From Gammaproteobacteria bacterium (GTDB lineage: Bacteria > Pseudomonadota > Gammaproteobacteria > SZUA-229), in contig JAOUNI010000020.1 of assembly GCA_029881035.1 (NCBI GenBank), positions 1 to 44,026 of the forward strand: 44,026 nt of DNA, read 5' to 3'. Both the position numbers and the translations under genes were made by a program. Below, one piece after another: positions 10,992 to 44,026 of this stretch (its first letter is position 1; every line of letters begins with the position of its first letter). The notes under the pieces are model-generated. The model was not told where the DNA came from, did not search any database, and saw only the letters and a program-made list of their open reading frames with translations.

Positions 10992-11876
10992 TTGCACATT
11001 TTTATATCACGTACAGGACAAATTTTTCTGAATAATTTCAGATATCAATTGTTGTTCATTTTTTTCGGGCTCGCACTCTGTCAACCGATAATATCCATCG
11101 CGAAAGAAAATTCAAATTGTAGTGATGCCAGCCCAATTATTTTTGGAATTATTCCTTTTGTCAGCGCTGAGCAGCTCGTTATACAATTTTCACCGATAGC
11201 GCTTTATCTCTCGGATCATCTTGGTATTCCTGTCCGCATAGAAACCGCCCCTGATTTTGTAGAATTTGCCCGCCGTACTCATGAAGATAAGCGTTACGAT
11301 ATTCTATTTACAGCGCCCCATTTCTATCCTCAGGCAAGTAGCAGGGCAGGTTACAGATTAATTGTCAGTGTTGATTCACCGGGTATGTGGGCCGTTATTG
11401 TTGTGCCACGACAAAGTCCAATTCATAAGCTCGATGACCTGAAAGGCAAGCGGTTAGCAACGGTGCCCCCAGCAGGCCTTGCTACATTGCTAGTCAGAAA
11501 ATATTTGAATGATGCGGGTATCGATCCTGATGAGGATATCACCATAATCAGCACACCTTCACATGATGCCTCTTTGCTTTCTTCTTATTATGGAGTGACT
11601 GATGCATCAGCTTTGATGCAGCCTCCGTATGCAGCGGCCAGTCAACAAGTTCGTGACAACATGCGCATCATTGCTAGAACCGATAGCACGCCACACATTC
11701 CAATCAGTGTAAGCCCAAGAATCAATGATTCCTGTAAATCTGAAATAACTAAATTACTCTTAGAGATGAGTACAACACAAAAAGGAAAGGAAATTCTCAG
11801 TCATAATAGCTTCTCTGGTTTTAAACAAACGAAGCCCGAAGAATACGATAAAGTCCGCGATCTTCTCGCCAGATAA
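10992..11876 (+). CDS. PhnD-like periplasmic substrate-binding protein of a three-component signalling unit
   Basis: The protein is 294 aa from a TTG start (10992) with AGG nine bases upstream; the exact start is uncertain. A hydrophobic segment (about residues 19-36) should serve as signal peptide. The mature part follows the PhnD-type binding-protein pattern: FGIIPFVSAEQLVIQF, then LYLSDHLGIPVRIETAPDF, YDILFTAPHFY, and LDDLKGKRLATVPP. No ABC permease or ATPase gene is nearby. The stop is three bases before the start of a sensor kinase gene. The likely job is therefore to bind a ligand and present it to that kinase and not to feed a transporter. The ligand is unknown. Confidence 0.85.
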   Translation: MHIFISRTGQIFLNNFRYQLLFIFFGLALCQPIISIAKENSNCSDASPIIFGIIPFVSAEQLVIQFSPIALYLSDHLGIPVRIETAPDFVEFARRTHEDKRYDILFTAPHFYPQASSRAGYRLIVSVDSPGMWAVIVVPRQSPIHKLDDLKGKRLATVPPAGLATLLVRKYLNDAGIDPDEDITIISTPSHDASLLSSYYGVTDASALMQPPYAAASQQVRDNMRIIARTDSTPHIPISVSPRINDSCKSEITKLLLEMSTTQKGKEILSHNSFSGFKQTKPEEYDKVRDLLAR

Positions 11877-11879
11877 ATT

Positions 11880-13283
11880 ATGTTGTCTGCCATTAAAAAC
11901 CTGTTTCACTCACTTCGTTTTCGACTCATTGCAAGTGTGGTAACTATTGAAGTCATTATGCTTTCATTATTGGTCTGGAATAATATCTCCATTATTCATA
12001 CTACCCACACTGACCGACTCAGAGATACTGCAATCAGCATGATTCAACAGATTGCAACCACTTCTGGTAATTACATGGTCGCCGTGGATTATGCAACGCT
12101 TAAAGAATATCTCAGCAATATTATCAGTTACAAGGAGTTGTCCTATATTGTTGTTGTCGATCGAGATGAAAATGCTGTTATAGCATTGGGCACAGTTACT
12201 CCCGAAGCCAGACCCAAAATCGATACGCACCCTGCACTGGTTAATGACAATGTTTTTGATATCGCACAAAATATACAGGTTGCAGGCCAGCCTATGGGCC
12301 GTATGTTAATGGGTTTTTCTCTTTCATTGATGGATGATGCCATTCATAAATCACGTAATAGAGGCATTACCATTGCTTTAATTGAAATCATATTAACCAT
12401 TCTGGTTACTATTATTATCGGCCTGGGACTGACTCGAAGATTAGGCCTGCTTTCAAAAGCAGCAGGGGAGGTCGAAACAGGGAATTATTCTGTGACCGTG
12501 CCAACTGAGACAGATGACGAGGTAGGCAAAACAGCAGCAGCTTTCAATCGTATGGTTGCGGAAGTTTCAAAAAGAACGCAGCAGTTATTATATGAAGAAA
12601 AAAGAACACAACAACTACTGACTGAAAACAGGTTGCTAATAAAAAAATCACTCGAAGTTCAAGAAGAAGAACGCAAACACCTTGCTCGTGAGCTTCATGA
12701 TGAACTAGGGCAATGCATTACCGCCATTCAGGCCGACGCGGAGTCTATCAGAGATTTATCTCCAGAATGCGATCACCGTGTTATTACCAGTGCCGATGCG
12801 ATTTTAAATGTTTCTGCACATATTTATGATGTTGTTCACTCAATGATGCATCTTCTTCGCCCCAGTATTTTAGATAATCTTGGTCTTGAAGAAGCTTTAA
12901 AAGATGAAATCGATGTCTGGAAAAAACGAAATCCTAAAATAAGTTGCATCTATGATTTTGATGGTGACTTATCTAATCTTGGAGAACGCATTAACATAAC
13001 CATTTACCGTATCATCCAGGAATGTCTGACAAATATAGTTAAACATGCCTCTGCCAGTCACGTCAGTATAGAGTTGAAACGAGACCGAGAAAACCTACAT
13101 CTCAGTATCTGCGATGATGGTATCGGCATGGATTCTGCAGCACCCTCACAAGCTCATATTGGGCTCGGGATTATCGGCATGCGTGAACGTATACAGGCTT
13201 TAAATGGAATCTTTATGCATGAGACATCAACAGATAATGGCTTTCAGATTTTTATTAAAATTCCGAACGATAAAGAGCAATAA
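11880..13283 (+). CDS. NarL-family sensor histidine kinase (HAMP, HisKA_3, HATPase)
   Basis: The 467-aa inner-membrane kinase has a first membrane helix at about 14-33, a periplasmic sensor loop of roughly 125 residues, and a second helix at about 161-182. A HAMP linker (ETDDEVGKTAAAFNRM) follows, then a HisKA_3 dimerisation helix with the phospho-acceptor His near 272 in RELHDELGQ. The ATPase domain shows QECLTNIVKHA, DDGIGM and GLGIIGMRERI. It follows the PhnD-like gene by three bases and precedes the response regulator by three bases, so the three genes form one operon. It probably senses the ligand-loaded binding protein and phosphorylates the regulator. Confidence 0.95.
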   Translation: MLSAIKNLFHSLRFRLIASVVTIEVIMLSLLVWNNISIIHTTHTDRLRDTAISMIQQIATTSGNYMVAVDYATLKEYLSNIISYKELSYIVVVDRDENAVIALGTVTPEARPKIDTHPALVNDNVFDIAQNIQVAGQPMGRMLMGFSLSLMDDAIHKSRNRGITIALIEIILTILVTIIIGLGLTRRLGLLSKAAGEVETGNYSVTVPTETDDEVGKTAAAFNRMVAEVSKRTQQLLYEEKRTQQLLTENRLLIKKSLEVQEEERKHLARELHDELGQCITAIQADAESIRDLSPECDHRVITSADAILNVSAHIYDVVHSMMHLLRPSILDNLGLEEALKDEIDVWKKRNPKISCIYDFDGDLSNLGERINITIYRIIQECLTNIVKHASASHVSIELKRDRENLHLSICDDGIGMDSAAPSQAHIGLGIIGMRERIQALNGIFMHETSTDNGFQIFIKIPNDKEQ

Positions 13284-13286
13284 TTC

Positions 13287-13931
13287 ATGGCATCCAATAA
13301 TATAAGCGTAATACTGGCTGACGATCATGAAGTCGTCCGAGCGGGTTACCGTCGTCTACTTGAAGCAACTTCTGATATAACTGTTGTGGCCGAAGCAGAA
13401 GATGGAGAATCAGCCTACCGGTGTTTTTTCGAATACCAACCTGACGTACTGGTTATGGATATATCAATGCCGGGTATTGATGGTCTTGAAGCCAGTCGTA
13501 AGATCCTGAGTAAGGACAGGAATGCCAAAATACTCATTTTTAGCGTTTATGAAAATGAAGTATATTTAAAACGAGCGCTTGACCTCGGTGTGCTTGGTTA
13601 CATATCAAAACGTAATGCCTCACAGGTTATGATTGATGCTGTTCGACAAATCGCATCGGGTACATTATTTGTCGGACAGGAAATGATGCCGTATCTGGTG
13701 AAATCAAGAAATTCAAACGATGGTGACCCTTTATCAATTTTGTCACCCCGGGAGTTCGAGGTATTTCTTCTACTTGCCGATAGTAAATCAGTGAACGAGA
13801 TTGCCGAATTACTCAACCTGAGTCCAAAAACAGCGGGACATCATTACACTCATTTAAAAAACAAACTGGGTATTAATGATATTGCCGGTTTAACCCGACT
13901 TGCAATACGTCATGGTCTTATTACCCCGTAA
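13287..13931 (+). CDS. NarL/FixJ-family response regulator
   Basis: The 214-aa DNA-binding regulator has a receiver domain at about 1-125, with acidic pair Asp12-Asp13, phosphorylation site near Asp57 in VMDISMPG and the conserved Lys in YISKRN. A LuxR-type helix-turn-helix follows (LSPREFEVFLLLAD, then NEIAELLNLSPKTAGHHY). It sits three bases after its cognate kinase. Targets are not evident. No palindrome repeated within the window clearly matches a LuxR-type site. Confidence 0.95.
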   Translation: MASNNISVILADDHEVVRAGYRRLLEATSDITVVAEAEDGESAYRCFFEYQPDVLVMDISMPGIDGLEASRKILSKDRNAKILIFSVYENEVYLKRALDLGVLGYISKRNASQVMIDAVRQIASGTLFVGQEMMPYLVKSRNSNDGDPLSILSPREFEVFLLLADSKSVNEIAELLNLSPKTAGHHYTHLKNKLGINDIAGLTRLAIRHGLITP

Positions 13932-31701: not shown

Positions 31702-33777
31702 TCATTCATCTTTAACCACCGGCAATCGTATATCCACGCAAACACCATCCTTATCAGTAGTATTAAATATCTTCAGTACACCATTATGATATTTGGCAAT
31801 TTTTGCTGCCACATACAGACCAATCCCCAAATGCGGTTCTCCAATAGTGCCTTGTCGGTGAGAGATGATACCGCTGCATAAATTATTGATAATGTTATCC
31901 GCGATCAACCTGCCTTTATTGCAGATACTGACTACGGCCTGATCTTTATCATCTCTATTTAGTTCAATTCTGATTTCTGATCCGGGCACAGCAAAGTCAA
32001 TGGCGTTATCTTTAAGTTTATCGAGCAGCTGGGTCATTCTTAAATCGCTACCCTGTATCCTGATGCCTGAACCGGGCCCAGTATAAGAAAATACACGGTC
32101 TGTATGTTTAAGGCTGATGTTTGACACATACTCGGATAGTAATTCGGCCAGGTCGAAGATTTCTTTTTCGTCCTGCGATAAGGCATCTTCGATATGTGCT
32201 GCCTCAGTCAGGCTATGTACGATGAGTTCGAGCTGCCTTGAGGCATTGGTGGCACTGTTGATGAGTTTCTCGTCGAATTCATGGCTGGCACTCATTTTTT
32301 GTAGAGCCATACTAATAGTGTTGAGCGGGTTTAATATTTCATGGCGCAGGGTTCTAGGTACGCTTTCAAGAAACCCGGTATAGCTCTTTAATTGCGATAA
32401 CAGCGTTGAGAAACCACGCGAGAGTTCGCCAACTTCATCATTGGCGTTGCTGCTGGCGTTGATCGTATCCTTGATTAAACGACCATCACGATCAAATGCG
32501 CTGGAGACTTCTTTTTGCAGGTTTCTGATTCGATAGGCCAGCAAACTACTGAATAATAACAGTCCGATTATCGCCATAATAAAAACAACGACAGTGGCGA
32601 TAATAATTTTAGTCAGCGAGTCACGTTGACTGGAAAGTATGGTGGCACTGTTTTTTTCAACCAATACCGCACCGGTTATTTCTTTGTCCTGATAGATGGG
32701 ATGTGAAGCCAGCACCAGTTCTTCTCCTGTTCCTGGAAGGCTTCTAACAACATTACTTTGTCCAAGCAGGGCCTGAGCCACTAGATCAGGCGCAACTTTA
32801 TCGTTTAACGAGCATAGCGTGCTCTGCAAAGCGTTACTACCGATGACAGCACGTACCCGACGGTACTGATCAACAATGCAGACATTGGAGTCGGCATACC
32901 CGAGGCCTTTGATAATTCTGTCAAGTTCAGGTGAGCGTACAATTAGTTTATTCAATGCAGCCACATCATCATGCAGGGTCGCCACAACAGTATCAATTTT
33001 TCGTTCAGTACTACTGTTGACATCAACCACGCTAATCATCAGGTGTTTATCATCATTCAACCAGTCAATAGGAAAACGCATTTCCACATCATAACCACCG
33101 GCTGTTTCTCTCCATATGGCATTGAGCTTATAGACAGGCTGACCGGTGAGAGGCCTGACCCAGTCATCAAACATTTCATATACACTGACATTTCCTGCTA
33201 CTTCCGTGATCAATAAGTATCTTTTAACCTCACCTGATTTATCGATTAACTCAACACGAATCTGGTCACTACTATCGAGTCGGGTGTATTGTGGGTGTCG
33301 GTAGACAATATCGGCGTCGGTGACACTAATCAAAGCGTATAGATGTTTATTGTATTCGCCGAGTAACAGACCAAAAGAAACAGGAGCGACTGAACCTGCG
33401 GTTCTGTCATAGATAAGGCTCTCGGCGCCAAATGTTCTTTTTTGTGATAATAATAAGTTCCAGTCACTACCATAACCATCGAGCACAATCCTCTGATTGA
33501 GCGGGTAGACATAAAGTGAACTTTCTTCAATGAGTGAATTACTGGGGCTATTTGAAATATTGAACAGGTCAGAGCGATTATGCAGCACGGTAGCGATAGC
33601 GCCTGCAGCTAATAATTGCGCATCCTCCTGACCCTGAACTAAAAACTCTTTCATTTCATCCATATAACGATTACCTAGCCAGGGCAGGGCCATCAGAAAC
33701 AAAGCACTGAATGCAATAATCTGCACGCTCAACGATAATCTGCGCCTAATTTTTCTACTGGTTTTTAACATGTCCAA
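31702..33777 (-). CDS. pdsS: Sensor kinase PdsS of the proteobacterial dedicated sortase system
   Basis: The 691-aa inner-membrane kinase has a first membrane helix at about 17-35. A large periplasmic part contains a CBM9/DOMON-like beta domain (VLDGYGSDWNLL, LYALISVTDAD, SSDQIRVELID). A second helix lies at about 392-418. A cytoplasmic linker is followed by a HisKA helix (LRHEILNPLNTIS) and HATPase motifs (LKDNAIDFA, GIGLYVAAKI). Domain order and position match PdsS, the kinase always found with class GN sortases. It overlaps pdsR by 13 bases. The sugar-binding-like sensor suggests recognition of a surface polysaccharide, which is inference. Confidence 0.9.
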   Translation of the reverse strand: MDMLKTSRKIRRRLSLSVQIIAFSALFLMALPWLGNRYMDEMKEFLVQGQEDAQLLAAGAIATVLHNRSDLFNISNSPSNSLIEESSLYVYPLNQRIVLDGYGSDWNLLLSQKRTFGAESLIYDRTAGSVAPVSFGLLLGEYNKHLYALISVTDADIVYRHPQYTRLDSSDQIRVELIDKSGEVKRYLLITEVAGNVSVYEMFDDWVRPLTGQPVYKLNAIWRETAGGYDVEMRFPIDWLNDDKHLMISVVDVNSSTERKIDTVVATLHDDVAALNKLIVRSPELDRIIKGLGYADSNVCIVDQYRRVRAVIGSNALQSTLCSLNDKVAPDLVAQALLGQSNVVRSLPGTGEELVLASHPIYQDKEITGAVLVEKNSATILSSQRDSLTKIIIATVVVFIMAIIGLLLFSSLLAYRIRNLQKEVSSAFDRDGRLIKDTINASSNANDEVGELSRGFSTLLSQLKSYTGFLESVPRTLRHEILNPLNTISMALQKMSASHEFDEKLINSATNASRQLELIVHSLTEAAHIEDALSQDEKEIFDLAELLSEYVSNISLKHTDRVFSYTGPGSGIRIQGSDLRMTQLLDKLKDNAIDFAVPGSEIRIELNRDDKDQAVVSICNKGRLIADNIINNLCSGIISHRQGTIGEPHLGIGLYVAAKIAKYHNGVLKIFNTTDKDGVCVDIRLPVVKDE

Positions 33778-34454
33778 CTGTAACCAAAACCATAGCGGGT
33801 TTTTATACAGGAAAATTCAGAATCTACCTGTTTAAACTTTTTTCGTATATGAAGAATATGAGTGTTAATAGTATTGTCTTCGACCACACCCTGTCTTGTA
33901 GCGCTGACTAGATCCTCGATGCTAACACCACTCGGTGTATTTAATATCGCACGTAAAATGTCAAATTCCGTGGGTGTTAGATTAACCGGAATGTTTTTCC
34001 ACTTCATAGTCATACTGGCATCATCAATGCTGATATCCCCGATATGCTGAAAATTAGTAGACTGACTATTAGCCGAAGTATTATTTTTTATCTGGAACAA
34101 AGATTGAATACGTGTAATCAGAAAATTTAGTGATACCGGCTTAGTTTGATAATCCCAGGCACCCAGTTGTAGACCATAAATTTTATCGAGTTCATCACCA
34201 CGACTGGTTAAAAAGATAATCGGGAACTGTGCATCTTTGTCTTTCAGGAAGCGACAGATTTCAAAGCCACCACCAACTTCATTACCCAGCATGATATCAA
34301 GAATCGCCAGGTCTGGCAGAGTCTGTTGAAATGCTTTAAGCGCTGCCGTTCTATCGGCATACTCAGCCACCTCATAACCACAGTTACGCAGTGCCTCTGC
34401 ATAATGCTGGCGTTGGTTAACATCGTCTTCGACTATAGCAATAATTTTTTTCAT
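33765..34454 (-). CDS. pdsR: Response regulator PdsR of the dedicated sortase system
   Basis: The 229-aa OmpR/PhoB-type regulator has a receiver domain (about 1-120) with the acidic pair Asp10-Asp11, phosphorylation site Asp53 in ILDIMLG and Lys in QTKPVS. A winged-helix DNA-binding domain follows (NLTPTEFDILRAILNTP, then NTINTHILHIRKKF). It is the first gene of the minus-strand pdsR-pdsS pair and diverges from pdsO across 179 bp. It presumably controls the sortase-substrate operon next to it. Confidence 0.92.
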   Translation of the reverse strand: MKKIIAIVEDDVNQRQHYAEALRNCGYEVAEYADRTAALKAFQQTLPDLAILDIMLGNEVGGGFEICRFLKDKDAQFPIIFLTSRGDELDKIYGLQLGAWDYQTKPVSLNFLITRIQSLFQIKNNTSANSQSTNFQHIGDISIDDASMTMKWKNIPVNLTPTEFDILRAILNTPSGVSIEDLVSATRQGVVEDNTINTHILHIRKKFKQVDSEFSCIKTRYGFGYSWTC

Positions 34455-34633
34455 GGCCTCAATCTACCTCATTTTGTCCAGATTGTAGAGTGATTTGCCT
34501 GCATCTCCATAATTTATCCATTTTCTTTCCATGCACTGCCAAAGATTGAAATAGCTTGCCTTGATTTAATGACAACCGTAACGAGGTGTTACCACATTTG
34601 TGAATCACCAATATTTTAAATCAGGAGATAACC

Positions 34634-35425
34634 ATGAATAAAAAAATAATTTCAATCGCAATCGCCTCCATTATCGCAGCAACTTCAGGCCAGAGCATGG
34701 CCAGCCAGGATGAACAGGAAACGACAAACAGTAAAAAACAGATTACTGCTATCAGTATTGGTGCAGTCAGTGGTGCACTGATTGCCGGACCAGCAGGCCT
34801 GATTATTGGTGGTCTCGTCGGTGCACTGGCCAGCCATAACGGTACAGAATCTGAATCTAATATTCAAGGGATCGATCACCTGGCAGAAACTGAAATAATG
34901 TTGAATGAAATGCTGGATTCTTCGAAACAACTTGAAGATAACAAGCAAGTAATGACAGCATCAGTCAGTAACATCGTTTCAGTGACCGAATCTGATAACA
35001 CAGAGGTTAACAGCACTTTACAGGAAATTATCATCAATGACCTCAGCCTTGATGTTTATTTCAAAGCAGGCAGTATTATTGTAGAAAAATTTTACTCACC
35101 ACAACTTTCAGTAATTGTAGATTTGCTCAATAAGATTCCAGACCTGGAGTTAAAACTTGATGCTTATTCAGACCGACTGGGTAATGAAGCTGACAACCTC
35201 CAGTTATCTGCTGAACGACTAGCCTCTGTACACGAATACTTTGTTAACCACGGCATTGATCTAAATCGCATCACCAGTTATGCACATGGTGAAAAGAATT
35301 TCGTCTCATTACCGGGTGATCTTGACACGTACATGTTCGATCGTCGCGTCGTAGTTAGCTTTAAAACACCATCACAAGGGCTGCAAAACAACCTTGCAAT
35401 CATGACAGAAAAACCATCTTTTTAA
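34634..35425 (+). CDS. pdsO: PdsO, OmpA-family protein of the dedicated sortase system
   Basis: The 263-aa protein has a signal peptide (about 1-23, ending SMAS), a Gly-rich zipper segment (GAVSGALIAGPAGLIIGGLVG is the kind of membrane-inserting motif seen), a linker, and a C-terminal OmpA-like peptidoglycan-binding domain (about 135-250) with LKLDAYSDRLGNEADNLQLS and SAERL. CAGGAGATAACC precedes the ATG. It is the first gene of the plus-strand part of the locus. Its job in the system is not known; anchoring a sortase or substrate complex to the cell wall is plausible. Confidence 0.9.
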   Translation: MNKKIISIAIASIIAATSGQSMASQDEQETTNSKKQITAISIGAVSGALIAGPAGLIIGGLVGALASHNGTESESNIQGIDHLAETEIMLNEMLDSSKQLEDNKQVMTASVSNIVSVTESDNTEVNSTLQEIIINDLSLDVYFKAGSIIVEKFYSPQLSVIVDLLNKIPDLELKLDAYSDRLGNEADNLQLSAERLASVHEYFVNHGIDLNRITSYAHGEKNFVSLPGDLDTYMFDRRVVVSFKTPSQGLQNNLAIMTEKPSF

Positions 35426-35497
35426 GAATTAACCCGGCTCACTGGTATGTCCAAAACCGGGATTATTTATAAATTATTTATCAGCCAGGTAATTATT

Positions 35498-35773
35498 ATG
35501 AACATGACCCACCAGGAAAAAATAAATCATAAAAAACGCTCAATTCCACCACTTATCATTAACTGGTTACGCCATTTCGGCTGCCGTATCACAGGCATGA
35601 ATGGCACGACGCTAATCTATTTTGATAAACAAAGTAAACGTACTTTGTGTTCAGAAGTTGGTCATACCATTGTTAGAAGGCTGGATGACATGATGGACGC
35701 CTATCTGGTGATGTCCAAGGACAGAATTATTGCCGTCGGCCACCGGTTCTCACATCAGCGAAGTGAAAAATAA
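35498..35773 (+). CDS. Small conserved-looking protein inside the sortase locus, function unknown
   Basis: From the ATG at 35498 the protein has 91 aa, with AGGT about eight bases upstream; a longer frame from 35447 has no ribosome binding site. It is basic and soluble, with no signal peptide or membrane helix. Recognisable pattern: IINWLRHFGCRITG, IYFDKQSKRTL, GHTIVRRLDDMMDAYLV and VGHRFSHQR. I do not know the family. Its position between pdsO and the sortase substrate, 32 bases before the substrate start, suggests that it is co-transcribed. It could be a regulator or an extra system component. Confidence 0.65.
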   Translation: MNMTHQEKINHKKRSIPPLIINWLRHFGCRITGMNGTTLIYFDKQSKRTLCSEVGHTIVRRLDDMMDAYLVMSKDRIIAVGHRFSHQRSEK

Positions 35774-35805
35774 GCCTCAATAAAAAATATCAGGAGATGA
35801 TTGCC

Positions 35806-37902
35806 ATGAGATACAGCAACGATTTTCGCTATTCATATAGCAAACCTAACAGAATAAAAACCATATTCATTCGATTGCTGGTGACGGTGCTTGTCTTCCT
35901 GATGTTTTTTATGCTGGCGACCAATGTCTATGCCGGCGCGGAGACCCCGGCGAGTGCGCCCGACCTGAATGCCGCCACGAGAGGCTCTGCCTGGCTACTG
36001 CCTAGTGACGGCGTCTATATCGAAGCGTTGCAGCTGCAATCCAACGTTAACATTAATATTAGCGGCATGATTGCACGCGCGAAGGTCAATCAGCATTTCA
36101 GAAATACCAGCAGTTTATGGGCAGAAGGCATCTATGTTTTTCCTTTGCCGGAAAATGCCGCGGTTGATCATTTCAAGATCATCATTGACGGGCGAATCAT
36201 TGAAGGCCAAATAGAAGAAAAGGAACAGGCCAGAAAAACCTATGAAACGGCCAAGCGCAATGGCCAGAGAACAGGACTAATTGAGCAACAACGACCCAAT
36301 ATATTTACCACCAAACTCGCCAACATTGCACCGGGCGCTGAAATGGCGGTAGAAATTGAGTATCAACAAACACTGGAATACCGAGACGGCCAGTATTCAC
36401 TGCGTTACCCACTGGTGGTGGGTGAGCGTTATATCACCGCATCGAAACAGGGCATTGCCGATCCGCAGTATGACACGGGCGTTTACACACAGTCGTCAAC
36501 CACATCCAATCAGCTCAACCCGACATCGATCAGTGTCAATCTGGACACCGGCATATCGGTGACAAATATTGTCAGTAGCAGCCACGACGTTAGCATTAGC
36601 CCTCAGCTGGATAATCGCTACACCGTCAGCTTGCAGGATGAACATGTGCCCGCTGACCGTGACTTTTTACTAACCTGGACGCCGGTGCTGGGTAAATTAC
36701 CCAAAGCGACCGTGTTCAATCAAAAACAGAATGGCTACGAATACAGCCTGGTCACGGTCTACCCGCCAAAGAACGAGCTCTATAACCAGCTTGATATACC
36801 CAGAGAGGTCGTCTTTATTTTAGACGTATCGGGTTCCATGTCAGGCACGTCGATTGAGCAGGCGAAGCTAGCTTTAAGTCTGGCGCTGGACAGACTCAAA
36901 CCATCGGATAAATTTAATATTATCTGGTTCAACAACATGGCTAAAAAGATTTTTTTTGATTCGAACTTTGCCAGCAACCAGAACATACAGTATGCGCAGA
37001 AATTTTTAAGCGCTTTAAACGCCGACGGCGGCACAGAAATGATGCCGGCACTTCAACTGGCCTTTAGCACACCTGTTCAACCTGAATTTCTCCGCCAGCT
37101 GGTATTTATTACCGATGGCAATGTCAGCAATGAACGCGATTTGTTTGCCTATATAAAAACGAATTTAGGAGAGAACCGGCTGTTCACGGTCGGCATTGGT
37201 TCTGCACCAAACAGTTTTTTTATGAAAAAAGCGGCGAAGGCGGGGCGGGGCACGTTTACATTTATTAGCAATATCCGGGAAGTGGGCCAGAAAACGGCAG
37301 CGCTGTTCAAAAAACTGGAAACACCGGCTTTGACCGATATACGCCTGGCTGTCATCGGCGATGATATCGAAATTTACCACGACCCAATACCTGACCTTTA
37401 TATCGGTGAGCCGGTCACAGTCTTGTTGCGTGGAAAAAATATTTTCAACTCCATCACCATGAATGGAAACATTGGCACCCAGCCCTGGCAGCATAAAGTA
37501 TCGCTAAATCGAGGTTCTGATAATGATGGTGTCAGACTGGCCTGGGCTCGGGAAAAAATTGGCTCACTCAGCGCCGACTATCATGACGAGAGCAACGGCA
37601 ACCTGAAAGATCATCTAAGACTGCAGATCATCGAAGAATCGATAAAGCATCATTTGCTCAGCCAGTTCACCAGCCTGGTGGCCGTCGATGTTACGCCCGT
37701 TAATCAGAGTGGCGAACTGCATGCTGAGCGAATTAAAAATAACCTGCCATTCGGCTGGACACGGCCAGCTAAAACTAATCAGCCATCAGCATCACAGATC
37801 CATTTTCCTCAAACTGCAGCAGGCTCATATCGGCATGTTATTTTAGCGATGATGTTTATTGGCCTGGCCATCGTCATCCGCCGCCTGAGATTCATCTTGT
37901 GA
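35806..37902 (+). CDS. Sortase-target surface protein with VIT and von Willebrand factor A domains
   Basis: The protein is 698 aa. The ATG at 35797 directly abuts AGGAG, so the ATG at 35806 is preferred. A signal peptide or helix (about 22-45, ending VYAGAE) leads to a VIT domain (about 55-185: AKVNQHFRNTSSLWAEGIYVF, EGQIEEKEQARKTYE). A vWA domain (about 335-510) follows, with intact MIDAS residues in FILDVSGSMSG and FITDGNVSNE. The C-terminus has a sorting-signal layout: FPQTA (667-671), a hydrophobic segment, and a basic tail RRLRFIL. This makes it the single substrate expected for the adjacent class GN sortase. Its function on the surface is unknown. Confidence 0.93.
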   Translation: MRYSNDFRYSYSKPNRIKTIFIRLLVTVLVFLMFFMLATNVYAGAETPASAPDLNAATRGSAWLLPSDGVYIEALQLQSNVNINISGMIARAKVNQHFRNTSSLWAEGIYVFPLPENAAVDHFKIIIDGRIIEGQIEEKEQARKTYETAKRNGQRTGLIEQQRPNIFTTKLANIAPGAEMAVEIEYQQTLEYRDGQYSLRYPLVVGERYITASKQGIADPQYDTGVYTQSSTTSNQLNPTSISVNLDTGISVTNIVSSSHDVSISPQLDNRYTVSLQDEHVPADRDFLLTWTPVLGKLPKATVFNQKQNGYEYSLVTVYPPKNELYNQLDIPREVVFILDVSGSMSGTSIEQAKLALSLALDRLKPSDKFNIIWFNNMAKKIFFDSNFASNQNIQYAQKFLSALNADGGTEMMPALQLAFSTPVQPEFLRQLVFITDGNVSNERDLFAYIKTNLGENRLFTVGIGSAPNSFFMKKAAKAGRGTFTFISNIREVGQKTAALFKKLETPALTDIRLAVIGDDIEIYHDPIPDLYIGEPVTVLLRGKNIFNSITMNGNIGTQPWQHKVSLNRGSDNDGVRLAWAREKIGSLSADYHDESNGNLKDHLRLQIIEESIKHHLLSQFTSLVAVDVTPVNQSGELHAERIKNNLPFGWTRPAKTNQPSASQIHFPQTAAGSYRHVILAMMFIGLAIVIRRLRFIL

Positions 37903-38483
37903 TTAGCCGCCGATCTCTGGCCAATGTCATCATGCTGATGTGCCTGACTATCGGTACCTGGCATCTTGGCAGTGCCTCATGGATTTACAGCAAGGCTTAT
38001 GCGGCGTCATTTTTAATTAACGAAGCCTGGCAGGCAACGCTGACCAATAACGCTATCAACAAGCCCTGGTCGTGGGCGGACACCTGGCCAGTGGCCAAGT
38101 TATCCATTCCCGCCATTGAGTTAGATGAGATCATCCTGTCCGGCGACAGCGGTTCAAGCCTGGCCTTCGGGCCGGGGCTGTCACAGGCCGGCGCCGCGTT
38201 GCATGAGGATGGCACCAAACTCATTAGCGGCCACCGTGACACGCATTTCAGTCAACTGCAGTACATTGCCGTCGATGATGATATTTTTATAAAAACAGCA
38301 AGCGTTGATAAAAAATATAAAGTGATCGATATTAAAATCGTTGATAGCCGTACAGAGAGCATTGACCCGGCCGAAGCCGATTATGATCTTGTCCTGGCCA
38401 CCTGTTACCCTTTTAACTCGGTTTCGGTCGGCGGGCCGCAACGCTTCATTGTAAGAGCGATTGAGCAGCAGGTGAAATACTGA
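37899..38483 (+). CDS. Class GN sortase of the dedicated sortase system
   Basis: The 194-aa enzyme has one N-terminal membrane helix (about 8-28) and a sortase domain. Catalytic residues are His112 in SGHRDTH, Cys169 in LATCYPF and Arg182 in GGPQRF. It starts at a GTG that overlaps the stop of the substrate gene (GTGA), so translation is coupled. Sortases cut at LPXTG-like motifs and join the protein to a wall component. In these Gram-negative systems the acceptor is not known to me. Pairing with one substrate per genome is the rule for class GN. Confidence 0.95.
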   Translation: MISRRSLANVIMLMCLTIGTWHLGSASWIYSKAYAASFLINEAWQATLTNNAINKPWSWADTWPVAKLSIPAIELDEIILSGDSGSSLAFGPGLSQAGAALHEDGTKLISGHRDTHFSQLQYIAVDDDIFIKTASVDKKYKVIDIKIVDSRTESIDPAEADYDLVLATCYPFNSVSVGGPQRFIVRAIEQQVKY

Positions 38484-41611: not shown

Positions 41612-42685
41612 ATGATAGTACCAAAACAGACATATGCTTTAATCGCCATTTTTTTTATGCTTGTTAATGGTGACACTATCGCTGAGTCAATCGCAAATTT
41701 ACCTGTACTCCATGTTGCTGGATGGGATGTCTATTCCGACCCAGAATATCGTAACAAAACCATCGGTTATAAAAGCTTTGAAAATCAATTCGGTTATTCA
41801 ATCGAATTCACACCATTAAACAACCTCGATGAAATAATTTATTATGCCGAAACTAATAAGGATGTTGATGTATTAATTATTTCTAATGAAGGCATTGAGA
41901 TACTCTACAAGATGAATCTTGCCGAGAAATTAGATCTGGAAAAAATTCCCTATTATCAGGATTTACATCATAGCTTAAGGTACAGCTCATGGAGCCAATT
42001 TGATGGTGGCGTCTACGCTGTGCCATGGGCGTGGGGTCCAACCGGTCTGCTCTATGACAGCAAAATCATAGCTGAACCAGAAAGCTGGAATATATTTTGG
42101 GATCCAAAATATCGGGGTAAAGTGTCACTCTGGAATGATGTATCTATGATCTGGATTACAGCACTAACACTGGGATATAACAATGTCTATAACCTGACAC
42201 AAGACCAACTCAATGAAGTAAAACAAAAACTCCTGCTACTCAATGACCAGGTGCATTCCTACTACAAAGGCGAACAGGAAGAACTAGAACTTCTTATTTC
42301 AGGAAAAGTTTTTATCACCAATAGCTGGTTTGATCCGTCTTCGCGCCTGAATAAGCATAACAGGGAATTTAAAATGGTTATTCCAAAAGAGGGAGCCGTT
42401 GGCATGTTTGACAGTTACATGCTCAGTAGAAACAATAAATTAAATGAAATTTCACATCAATTTATTAATCATCAGATCAGCCCTGAGATTCAGTTACAAT
42501 TAAGCCGGATTACCGGATTATCTCCATCAAACATTGAAACATTGGCATTCATGACCCAGGATGAAATTCAAGCATTACATCTTAATGACCCTAGCTATTT
42601 CAGAAAGATGATTCTATGGAACGTAATGCCAAGAAAAAACCTGTATGAAAATGTAATGAAGGAAGTACGTCAACAGATCAAATAA
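41612..42685 (+). CDS. PotD/NspS-like periplasmic polyamine-type binding protein
   Basis: The 357-aa protein has a signal peptide (about 1-24, ending TIAES) and a bilobal binding-protein fold of the spermidine/putrescine family: LHVAGWDVYSDPEYR, DVLIISNEGIEILYK, the FDGGVYAVPWAWGPTGLLYDS segment typical of PotD-like proteins (split here only for description), and MFDSYMLSRNN. No ABC transporter genes are adjacent. Fifteen bases downstream starts a membrane GGDEF protein. This arrangement and length match NspS of Vibrio, which binds norspermidine or spermidine and signals to MbaA. Polyamine as ligand is therefore the best guess. Confidence 0.85.
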   Translation: MIVPKQTYALIAIFFMLVNGDTIAESIANLPVLHVAGWDVYSDPEYRNKTIGYKSFENQFGYSIEFTPLNNLDEIIYYAETNKDVDVLIISNEGIEILYKMNLAEKLDLEKIPYYQDLHHSLRYSSWSQFDGGVYAVPWAWGPTGLLYDSKIIAEPESWNIFWDPKYRGKVSLWNDVSMIWITALTLGYNNVYNLTQDQLNEVKQKLLLLNDQVHSYYKGEQEELELLISGKVFITNSWFDPSSRLNKHNREFKMVIPKEGAVGMFDSYMLSRNNKLNEISHQFINHQISPEIQLQLSRITGLSPSNIETLAFMTQDEIQALHLNDPSYFRKMILWNVMPRKNLYENVMKEVRQQIK

Positions 42686-42700
42686 AATATTGCTGACATT

Positions 42701-44026
42701 ATGAAAGAATACACCAGATTAATAGGTAATATTACAGCACTAGGTTTTGTACTAATTGTGGCTGTTGGTTATTTCATGTTTCTAGAAATGAATACAGCAT
42801 TACAATTGCACCAATTGCACCAATTCCAGACAGAATCCAGAGCAAAGATAGCAATATTTAATGAAAGAATTAACAATATCTCGAATAATTTTAATTCTTA
42901 CGCAAAGCTTCCATCATTCAAATCCATACGATTTCACACGCTCACCTTAAATTATCTAGCTGCCGATGAGGATAAGCGACAACTTGAATTATTTCTATTT
43001 GATGCTCAAAAAGACAATATTCACCTAATTGAAACAAGATTTATTGACAACGAAGGAGTTGAAATAATTAAAGTTGATCAAACTGCCATATATTCAAATC
43101 TGGAAAATGTCAGTAATGACAAAAATGTATTACATTTAATTAGTCTGAATCTTAAGGCAGATGAAAACCACATTGATGCAATCACTAATGATTCAGGAAC
43201 ATTAGTCAGCGTAATCTGGTGGGTACCCGTGTATGTATCATCCACAAAAAGATTAGGCTATCTTGCCTTTAATGTTAATTCAACATTAATTACCAGAGAA
43301 ATTACCGATATTGCCGACAGTGGCCAGAATTTTATAATTATAAATAATCAATTCGACAATCTCAGTCGAAGCGAGTATCTATTAATTTCAGAGCCATTAC
43401 TGGAAAATATCAAACTGGATGATGTCGACTGGATAGTTTCAGATGAACTGCCATTAAGCGGCCTAAACTGGAGAATTTCAATTGTTGGCAACAAAAATCT
43501 TTATACTGAAGGCATTGAGACGACGAAGTTAATTGTCAATTATGGTCTTATACCTGCATCAATTCTGATTTTTATTTTTTTGGCCTACATATACAGAAAA
43601 AAAATAGCTGCTGATAAACACATACATCATCTTGCCTTTTATGACAGCCTGACAGGACTGGTAAATCGTCACCAGTTTGACAACGCACTCAATAACGCTC
43701 TGATTGAAACCAAAGAACATAATTCTCAACATGCTTTACTGTATCTGGATCTTGATCAATTCAAAATTGTTAATGACACTTGTGGACATTTGGCCGGTGA
43801 CAAACTACTTGAAGAGTTAGCAGCTTATCTTAAAAAAACTGTCCGTGACATTGATATGTTAGCCAGACTCGGTGGTGATGAGTTTGCATTACTACTCAAT
43901 CTATGTCCTGAAAATATGGCTATCAATATCGCCAATAAGATACTTACCACTGTTTCTGATTTTCGTTTTGTCTGGAAAGAGAAGTCATTTAGTATTGGCG
44001 TCAGCATTGGCGTTGTTTTCATCAAT
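42701..44026 (+). CDS. Membrane GGDEF protein, MbaA-like, 3' end cut by the window edge
   Basis: 442 codons are visible and the frame is open at the right edge. Membrane helix 1 is at about 7-29, a periplasmic sensor domain of roughly 245 residues follows, and helix 2 is at about 277-298. A diguanylate cyclase domain begins near 308 (YDSLTGLVNRHQF, LYLDLDQFKIVND), with the active-site loop RLGGDEF (GGDEF at 391-395) and an intact inhibitory-site RxxD (RDID) just before. No HAMP domain is evident. An EAL domain may lie beyond the edge, as in MbaA. It is co-transcribed with the PotD-like gene. Role: adjusts cyclic-di-GMP in response to the ligand-loaded binding protein. Confidence 0.9.
   Translation, partial: MKEYTRLIGNITALGFVLIVAVGYFMFLEMNTALQLHQLHQFQTESRAKIAIFNERINNISNNFNSYAKLPSFKSIRFHTLTLNYLAADEDKRQLELFLFDAQKDNIHLIETRFIDNEGVEIIKVDQTAIYSNLENVSNDKNVLHLISLNLKADENHIDAITNDSGTLVSVIWWVPVYVSSTKRLGYLAFNVNSTLITREITDIADSGQNFIIINNQFDNLSRSEYLLISEPLLENIKLDDVDWIVSDELPLSGLNWRISIVGNKNLYTEGIETTKLIVNYGLIPASILIFIFLAYIYRKKIAADKHIHHLAFYDSLTGLVNRHQFDNALNNALIETKEHNSQHALLYLDLDQFKIVNDTCGHLAGDKLLEELAAYLKKTVRDIDMLARLGGDEFALLLNLCPENMAINIANKILTTVSDFRFVWKEKSFSIGVSIGVVFIN

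What the first reader, a model, noticed from the sequence alone, without database searches (positions are those of the whole stretch)
41612..44026. NspS/MbaA-type polyamine to cyclic-di-GMP signalling pair
A PotD-like binding protein with no transporter and a two-helix membrane GGDEF protein are 15 bases apart, the arrangement known in Vibrio for control of biofilm by norspermidine and spermidine. Here the GGDEF and inhibitory sites are intact. The nearby sortase-anchored vWA protein and the PilZ receptor could be parts of the same surface-attachment response.
Basis: partly seen in the sequence, partly recalled or inferred. Interest (0 to 1): 0.55.

Follow-up and report, generated by a model that had tools for sequence, protein, structure and literature searches.

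The report
Binding-protein-gated cyclic-di-GMP receptor pair
A periplasmic binding protein and a membrane enzyme that makes and breaks the biofilm signal cyclic-di-GMP are encoded side by side and travel together between distant bacteria; they resemble the Vibrio polyamine sensor NspS/MbaA but come from a different branch of binding proteins, and their relatives carry the same sensor on other kinds of signalling output.

Summary
In detail: an orphan PotD-like binding protein (PBP, 41612-42685) lies 15 bases before a two-helix GGDEF protein (from 42701) with intact GGDEF and RxxD sites. The contig ends inside that gene; the rest lies on contig C7 (329-base overlap, 2 mismatches), giving 749 aa: TM-dCache-TM-GGDEF-EIL, without HAMP. 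So an EAL-type domain is present.

The pair is real. In 10 of 10 loci examined (Gammaproteobacteria, Magnetococcales, Sulfurimonas) the PBP precedes the same kind of sensor, and both occur in the same 5 of 96 relative genomes.

The NspS/MbaA label is half right. Sinorhizobium NspS groups with other DGC-linked PBPs on the PotD side. The window PBP belongs to the YdcS/aldehyde-dehydrogenase-operon side, and an AU test rejects joining it with NspS. Its pocket keeps Trp38, Tyr41, Asp176, Trp239 and Asp267 but has Glu93, Met265 and Leu303 at contact positions. The ligand is probably an amine; spermidine or norspermidine is unproven.

Most interesting: in 4 of 10 loci the sensor is fused to a histidine kinase instead of GGDEF, with the same pocket (3 of the 4 checked). 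This is a portable two-protein receptor with exchangeable output: a new variant of a known kind.

The parts
41612..42685 (+). Periplasmic binding protein, 357 aa, hydrophobic N-terminal signal segment; type-A family (YdcS side of the PotD/YdcS superfamily)
42701..44026 (+). First 442 aa of a 749-aa sensor cyclase/phosphodiesterase; the gene continues on contig G000:C7 (L117, frame ends at base 1250) with the rest of GGDEF and an EIL-motif EAL domain
42701..43618 (+). Sensor part of that gene: TM helix, periplasmic double-Cache domain, TM helix; short linker, no HAMP
43634..44026 (+). GGDEF domain, first 132 of 161 Pfam positions within the window
43844..43855 (+). RxxD product-inhibition (I) site, residues 382-385 (RDID)
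   Evidence: RxxD named as allosteric inhibition site in PMC9993111
43871..43885 (+). GGDEF active-site motif, residues 391-395

Best explanation
The two genes make a two-protein surface receptor. The binding protein, secreted to the periplasm, captures a small amine-bearing solute. In one of its conformations it docks on the periplasmic double-Cache domain of its partner. Docking moves the second transmembrane helix, which runs without a HAMP domain straight into the catalytic part, and so shifts the balance between c-di-GMP synthesis (GGDEF) and breakdown (EIL-type EAL domain). The intact RxxD site should add product inhibition, which MbaA lacks. It works like NspS/MbaA but arose from a different binding-protein lineage, and the receptor half has been joined to other outputs (GGDEF of another lineage, histidine kinase, hybrid kinase) in relatives. 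Shown: gene order, domains, co-inheritance, lineage, output exchange. Inferred: docking, direction of the response, ligand class.
For: Adjacency in 10 of 10 loci across Gammaproteobacteria, Magnetococcales and Sulfurimonas, with no transporter gene in the pair. PBP and sensor occur in the same 5 of 96 genomes. PBP and sensor distances correlate (r 0.835, 0 of 5000 permutations, 10 loci), and the supported groups of the two trees agree. The full gene has GGDEF and an EAL-family domain; the catalytic E, N, E, DD, K and Q are present by eye (residue roles recalled). PBP model: Z 32.4 to spermidine-bound PotD (rmsd 3.0, 315 residues), 32.0 to YdcS (rmsd 3.0, 323 residues). Sensor model: double-Cache fold, Z 16.8 to 3lie (rmsd 3.8, 219 residues). 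Nearest transporter homologues sit in operons with aldehyde dehydrogenase genes (4 of 5 annotated regions), and patD follows ydcSTUV in E. coli, which fits amine substrates. Activation of diguanylate cyclase/phosphodiesterase receptors by binding proteins is an established mechanism (passages of PMC9602780; of PMC8967002).
Against: No binding or activity was measured. Neighbouring binding-protein and sensor-kinase genes are not always functionally linked: AgtS and AruS showed no binding to the nearby SBPs (abstract and passages of PMC11113362). The Cache domain could bind a ligand by itself. The mirror correlation was not compared with unrelated gene pairs, so shared vertical descent or joint transfer explains part of it. 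L044 has no EAL domain and its I-site stretch reads RDSS, so neither is universal in the family.
Confidence: 0.68

Rival explanations
1. It is a true NspS/MbaA system: the PBP binds norspermidine and spermidine with opposite effects and controls biofilm as in Vibrio.
For: Same gene order, orphan PotD-like PBP, GGDEF-EAL partner whose EAL motif has a changed middle letter as in Vibrio MbaA (EVL); V. cholerae facts from passages of PMC8079147 and section 17 of PMC9993111. W38, Y41, D176, W239, D267 retained.
Against: S. meliloti NspS groups with the PotD-side family; joining it with the window family is rejected, p-AU 3.3e-5, though NspS has a long branch. Partner has RxxD and no HAMP. hhalign finds no match between the sensor profile and S. 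meliloti MbaA's sensor (probability 0.3%); the NspS-side family's sensor profile also scores only 6.5% against it, so that comparison is not decisive. The W255/Y293/Y85 positions are M/L/E in 9 of 9. No nspC above its cut-off in the genome (best 48.5 bits, cut-off 409).
Confidence: 0.08
2. Same mechanism, but the ligand is a common polyamine (putrescine, spermidine, cadaverine or agmatine) bound by an independently recruited PBP.
For: Closest folds are PotD, YdcS, PotF; the family profile scores YdcS 109 bits, two PotD homologues 89, E. coli PotD 63; the equivalents of PotD Asp257 and Asp168 are kept.
Against: The E171, W255 and Y293 equivalents are M/L/I, M and L; M at 255 and L at 293 occur in 0 of 19 transporter PBPs compared. 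PBPs of the same Pfam family that were predicted to bind polyamines prefer GABA or 5-aminovalerate (PMC11113362).
Confidence: 0.3
3. Same mechanism, but the ligand is an amino-carboxylate such as GABA or 5-aminovalerate, or another metabolite (opine-like).
For: GABA receptor Atu4243 (4eq7, Z 29.1, rmsd 2.9, 306 residues) and opine PBPs are within about 3 to 4 Z of PotD; PA0602, PA4985 and AgtB (SBP_bac_8) bind GABA/5-aminovalerate (PMC11113362).
Against: Profile and fold rank polyamine-type PBPs first; no carboxylate-binding residue was identified, and the pocket was not examined in three dimensions.
Confidence: 0.3
4. The neighbours are not coupled: the enzyme senses a ligand directly through its Cache domain and the PBP serves a distant transporter.
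For: dCache domains often bind ligands directly (many ligand-bound structures); SBP/kinase neighbours can be unlinked (PMC11113362).
Against: 10 of 10 adjacency, exact co-occurrence in 96 genomes, congruent histories across phyla; the genome's PotBC-type transporter has its own PBP on contig C70.
Confidence: 0.12

Closest known systems
NspS/MbaA (Vibrio cholerae VC0704/VC0703; Sinorhizobium meliloti SMc00991/SMc00992)
   Same: Orphan PotD-superfamily PBP directly upstream of a 2-TM GGDEF-EAL protein; likely PBP-gated c-di-GMP switch; EAL motif with altered middle letter (EIL here, EVL in Vibrio)
   Different: Different PBP lineage (AU test against S. meliloti NspS), different pocket, GGDEF instead of SGDEF, RxxD present, no HAMP, sensor not alignable with S. 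meliloti MbaA's
PotD-side PBP plus dCache-HAMP-GGDEF-EAL pairs found here in G001, G040 and seven class genomes (type B)
   Same: Gene order and output; occurs in the window's own genus (G001)
   Different: PBP groups with NspS and PotD; HAMP present in the two scanned; no RxxD before GGDEF where readable
YdcS (E. coli, PDB 6nlp) and PBPs of ABC-transporter/aldehyde-dehydrogenase operons on Hoeflea, Ruegeria, Methylobacterium and Shinella plasmids
   Same: Nearest transporter-linked relatives of the PBP by tree, and YdcS first by profile and Foldseek
   Different: They belong to ABC transporter operons; 26-30% identity in the plasmid search
LuxP/LuxQ, TorT/TorS and other PBP-gated histidine kinases (recalled)
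   Same: PBP docks on a periplasmic domain of a 2-TM receptor; the type-A kinases in L042, L045, L046, L047 would work this way
   Different: Ligand and PBP superfamily differ; here the output is a cyclase/phosphodiesterase

Membership tests
NspS/MbaA | Orphan PBP gene directly upstream of the receptor gene | tested here: met
   15-base gap, no ABC transporter genes
NspS/MbaA | PBP belongs to the NspS lineage | tested here: not met
   S. meliloti NspS (L095) sits in the PotD-side clade (100/99); joining with type A rejected, p-AU 3.34e-5. V. cholerae NspS itself was not available
NspS/MbaA | Norspermidine-contact residues W41, Y233, D236, W261, D263 (PMC9993111) | tested here: not met
   W38 and D267 kept; W239 conservative; P242 and M265 differ. 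D70, D90, F131 not scored
NspS/MbaA | Receptor with HAMP, degenerate SGDEF and no RxxD | tested here: not met
   No HAMP hit in the G006, L043 and L044 partners; GGDEF and RxxD intact in the window
NspS/MbaA | EAL-type phosphodiesterase domain | tested here: met
   EIL motif on contig C7; EAL domain above Pfam cut-off in the G006 homologue
NspS/MbaA | Responds to norspermidine and spermidine | not testable with these tools
   needs binding and c-di-GMP assays
PBP-gated transmembrane receptors (general) | Conserved pairing of PBP and receptor periplasmic domain | tested here: met
   10 of 10 loci; the same 5 of 96 genomes
PBP-gated transmembrane receptors (general) | Physical PBP-receptor complex | not testable with these tools
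   no complex prediction offered
Diguanylate cyclase with product inhibition | GGDEF, and RxxD five residues upstream | tested here: met
   43844-43885; sequence only, activity not tested

The most novel reading that the evidence does not exclude
A previously undescribed, portable periplasmic receptor made of a dedicated binding protein and a double-Cache domain detects one amine-like ligand, which is not a classical polyamine, in Gammaproteobacteria, Magnetococcales and Campylobacterota, and has been plugged into several outputs: cyclase/phosphodiesterase, cyclase alone, histidine kinase with response regulator, and hybrid kinase. In Sulfurimonas the kinase version sits next to a REC-GGDEF-EAL protein, so one signal may reach c-di-GMP directly in one lineage and by phosphorelay in another.
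Probability: 0.4. Interest if true: 0.62.

Novelty: new variant of a known kind. Interest (0 to 1): 0.45.

Why it matters
Ligands are unknown for most c-di-GMP receptors. Here the ligand should sit on a small soluble protein that can be purified and screened alone, and natural kinase and cyclase versions of one receptor allow a direct test of how a binding protein controls different outputs. It also warns that a PotD-like gene next to a GGDEF gene is not enough to call a system NspS/MbaA: at least two PBP lineages stand next to GGDEF receptors.

Tried and rejected
Direct comparison with V. cholerae NspS/MbaA was not possible: no Vibrio chromosome record was reached. S. meliloti NspS/MbaA was used instead, recognised in CP090106 by gene order, 4-base overlap, SGDEF, lack of RxxD, and EAL; its identity with SMc00991/00992 was not checked by locus tag.

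The type-B sensor as a query of plasmids gave no match. The Ensifer adhaerens hit H62 showed no SGDEF or GGDEF frame nearby. The Sinorhizobium sp. K101 hit H28 did (SGDEF) and was not used further.

The idea that the sortase cluster is an obligate part was dropped: 6 of 10 type-A genomes gave no sortase match (G523 in that call is the same genome as L044's, contig length 20621, and was not counted twice). Several are incomplete draft genomes. In G798 (L043) the sortase is on another contig.

The REC-GGDEF-EAL protein of L047 looked like the type-A output moved to a response regulator, but two other GGDEF-EAL proteins of the window genome fall in the same group, so this is only suggestive.

Rows dropped: the L046 PBP (internal TGA) from the trees; the L064 PBP (masked in my ORF list by an opposite-strand frame), so type B has 8 tree rows for 9 loci. 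The 19 transporter rows were a chosen set. L048 (20% identity) was not counted as type A.

Literature seen: abstract and section 17 of PMC9993111; passages of PMC8967002, PMC8079147, PMC2628731, PMC8846402, PMC9602780; abstract and passages of PMC11113362. The listings showed no paper whose title or abstract start describes a YdcS-side PBP with GGDEF and kinase partners; most listed papers were not opened. Searches on the sortase family and on YdcS with putrescine gave nothing useful from the listings.

Full report
WHAT IS THERE. The window is one whole contig (G000:C28) of an unnamed 2.69-Mb genome with 45 GGDEF matches. ORF 41612-42685 encodes a 357-aa binding protein of the SBP_bac_6/SBP_bac_8 type. 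After 15 bases follows ORF 42701-, open at the window's end. The second gene continues on contig C7 of the same genome: C7 starts with 329 bases that match the window's end with 2 mismatches, and together they encode 749 aa. As a check, the genes after it on C7 resemble those after the G006 copy (by eye). The same-genus copy in G006 is 752 aa with GGDEF and EAL domains above Pfam cut-offs. The window's EAL motif reads EIL, G006's EVL, G087's and L043's EML. RxxD and GGDEF are intact at 43844-43855 and 43871-43885.

THE PAIR IS REAL. Homologous PBPs at 51% identity or more to the window's were found in nine further genomes: G006 (=L040), G087, G008 (=L042), G027 (=L045), L041, L043, L044 (Magnetococcales), L046 and L047 (Sulfurimonas) (L048 at 20% was not counted). 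I call these type A. In all ten loci the next gene downstream on the same strand is a 2-TM protein with the same sensor region, with gaps or overlaps of at most 20 bases in nine; in L046 the start is uncertain. Among 96 relatives, the PBP (E below 1e-130) and the sensor occur in the same five genomes, G000, G006, G008, G027 and G087 (G008 has two further weak partial sensor matches at 5e-9 and 1.5e-7). In the class sample, 2 of 369 genomes have the PBP at that level and the same 2 have the sensor; one further genome matches each profile more weakly (G254 beside a PotA-like ATPase; G386 a hybrid kinase beside what looks like a phosphonate-type PBP). In the phylum sample 2 of 398 have it. So the system is rare and patchy. 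PBP distances and sensor distances correlate (r 0.835; 0 of 5000 permutations reach it; 10 loci), although the PBP is far more conserved (mean identity 55% against 26%).

OUTPUT EXCHANGE. Six of ten partners carry GGDEF (window, G006, G087 and L043 in one GGDEF lineage, L041 and L044 in another) and four carry a kinase: L042, L045 and L047 have HisKA and HATPase_c, and L046 matches a hybrid kinase. The four kinase rows fall on one side of a branch in both trees (87/88 and 81/86, unstarred), so one switch is possible. L041 has a GGDEF of the other lineage although its PBP and sensor are sisters to the window's. L042 and L045 are followed by a CheY-like regulator (by eye), L047 by one and then a REC-GGDEF-EAL protein. 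L044 has GGDEF only.

FOLD. The PBP model (mean pLDDT 82) matches spermidine-bound PotD 1pot (Z 32.4, rmsd 3.0, 315 residues) and YdcS 6nlp (Z 32.0, rmsd 3.0, 323 residues), a tie; Foldseek puts YdcS first. The sensor model (pLDDT 85) matches double-Cache domains, best 3lie (Z 16.8, rmsd 3.8, 219 residues), and 2p7j, a Vibrio GGDEF-family protein's domain (Z 15.7, rmsd 4.8, 223 residues). No HAMP was found in the three GGDEF partners scanned (G006, L043, L044); one kinase (L042's) has a sub-threshold HAMP match.

IS IT NspS/MbaA? A second kind of PBP-GGDEF pair was found: G001 (the window's own genus), G040, and seven class genomes (L059-L065), nine loci. In the two scanned in full the receptor has dCache, HAMP, GGDEF and EAL matches; no RxxD stands in front of GGDEF where readable. 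I call them type B. S. meliloti NspS/MbaA was recovered from CP090106 (346 and 790 aa, 4-base overlap, SGDEF, EAL). In a 39-row tree NspS lies with type B and one other row (100/99) on the PotD side, and type A lies with YdcS and the PBPs of aldehyde-dehydrogenase operons. Holding type A with NspS costs 79.6 log units (p-AU 3.3e-5), and with type B and NspS 107.5 (p-AU 3.5e-71). NspS, YdcS and two kinase-linked rows have long branches, so finer placements are unsure. hhalign links the type-A and type-B sensors as remote homologues (probability 93.8%) but not type A with S. meliloti MbaA (0.3%); type B against MbaA is weak too (6.5%), so the sensor comparison is not decisive. No type-B PBP was found in the window genome at E 1e-70, and among 96 relatives no genome had both kinds.

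POCKET. On a 38-row alignment, with the roles of PotD residues recalled, all nine type-A PBPs without stops keep W34, Y37, S83, D168, W229 and D257 of PotD (window W38, Y41, S91, D176, W239, D267). All nine have E for Y85, M for W255 and L for Y293, none of which is seen at those positions in 19 transporter PBPs; E171 is M, L or I. Type B keeps W255 and D257 in 8 of 8 and has D at 232 in 8 of 8, as S. meliloti NspS does. The type-A pocket is thus coherent across phyla and across outputs, and distinct, so the ligand is probably one compound or class. The nearest transporter homologues, at 26-30% identity, stand in ABC operons ending in an aldehyde dehydrogenase in four of five annotated regions (a sixth had no annotation), and patD follows ydcSTUV in E. 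coli, so an amine is my first guess. PMC11113362 shows that SBP_bac_8 proteins predicted to bind spermidine and putrescine preferred GABA or 5-aminovalerate. The genome has a separate PotBC-linked PBP on C70 and no nspC above its cut-off.

NEIGHBOURHOOD. Genes 31702-38483 match the proteobacterial dedicated sortase families: histidine kinase TIGR03785, regulator TIGR03787 and PdsO TIGR03789 below their cut-offs, target TIGR03788 and sortase TIGR03784 above. The pair lies within about 3 kb of the sortase in G000, G006 and G087, with the opposite relative orientation in G087. The sortase was found in 4 of 10 type-A genomes, and in G001 without type A. Proximity in two families is suggestive, not proof, and the pair does without a detected sortase in six genomes as assembled.

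HOW IT WORKS. Best reading: the PBP, in its ligand-loaded or empty form, docks on the double-Cache domain; the signal passes through TM2 to shift synthesis against breakdown of c-di-GMP, with product inhibition through RxxD. V. cholerae gives the precedent (norspermidine-NspS favours synthesis by MbaA; passages of PMC8079147 and PMC8967002). The direction here is unknown.

VERDICT. Observation confirmed; interpretation right in kind, wrong in family; ligand open. A new variant of a known kind, interest 0.45.

Noticed in passing
window 10992-13931 (+): A second binding-protein/sensor set: PhnD-like PBP (PF12974), a HAMP-HisKA_3 histidine kinase 3 bases later, and a response regulator with a LuxR-type end (by eye); no transporter genes beside it.
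   Followed up: partly
window 31702-38483: Proteobacterial dedicated sortase cluster (kinase, regulator, PdsO, VIT/vWA target, class GN sortase) lies next to the pair in G000, G006 and G087.
   Followed up: partly
L033:10946-11213 (G087): The type-A cyclase gene is interrupted in its EAL part by a stretch that matches a repeat family with further copies at about 361-1779 of the same locus.
   Followed up: partly
L046:8099-8101: The PBP has an in-frame TGA exactly at the codon of the otherwise invariant Trp181; sequencing error, decay or recoding not resolved.
   Followed up: partly
L058 (G001), L038 (G040), L059-L065: A PotD-side PBP plus dCache-HAMP-GGDEF-EAL pair with canonical GGDEF, the likely NspS/MbaA-like group, found in 7 of 369 class genomes and once in the window's genus.
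   Followed up: partly
L058:2311-4404 (G001): Directly downstream of the type-B cyclase lies a second, similar GGDEF-EAL protein (697 aa) with GGDDF in place of GGDEF and a shorter sensor: a possible tandem duplicate.
   Followed up: no
L036:6292-9551 (G026): A distant PBP (31-33% to the window's) overlaps a hybrid histidine kinase gene by 4 bases; it is sister to type A in the trees (97/88, 93/88).
   Followed up: partly
L047:9995-14932 (Sulfurimonas): PBP, kinase, CheY-like regulator and REC-GGDEF-EAL in a row: the receptor family linked to c-di-GMP through a possible phosphorelay.
   Followed up: partly
L095 (CP090106.1): A 3.7-Mb record labelled plasmid pSymB carries nspS-mbaA-like genes that the literature names by SMc locus tags (chromosomal, recalled); the label may be wrong.
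   Followed up: no
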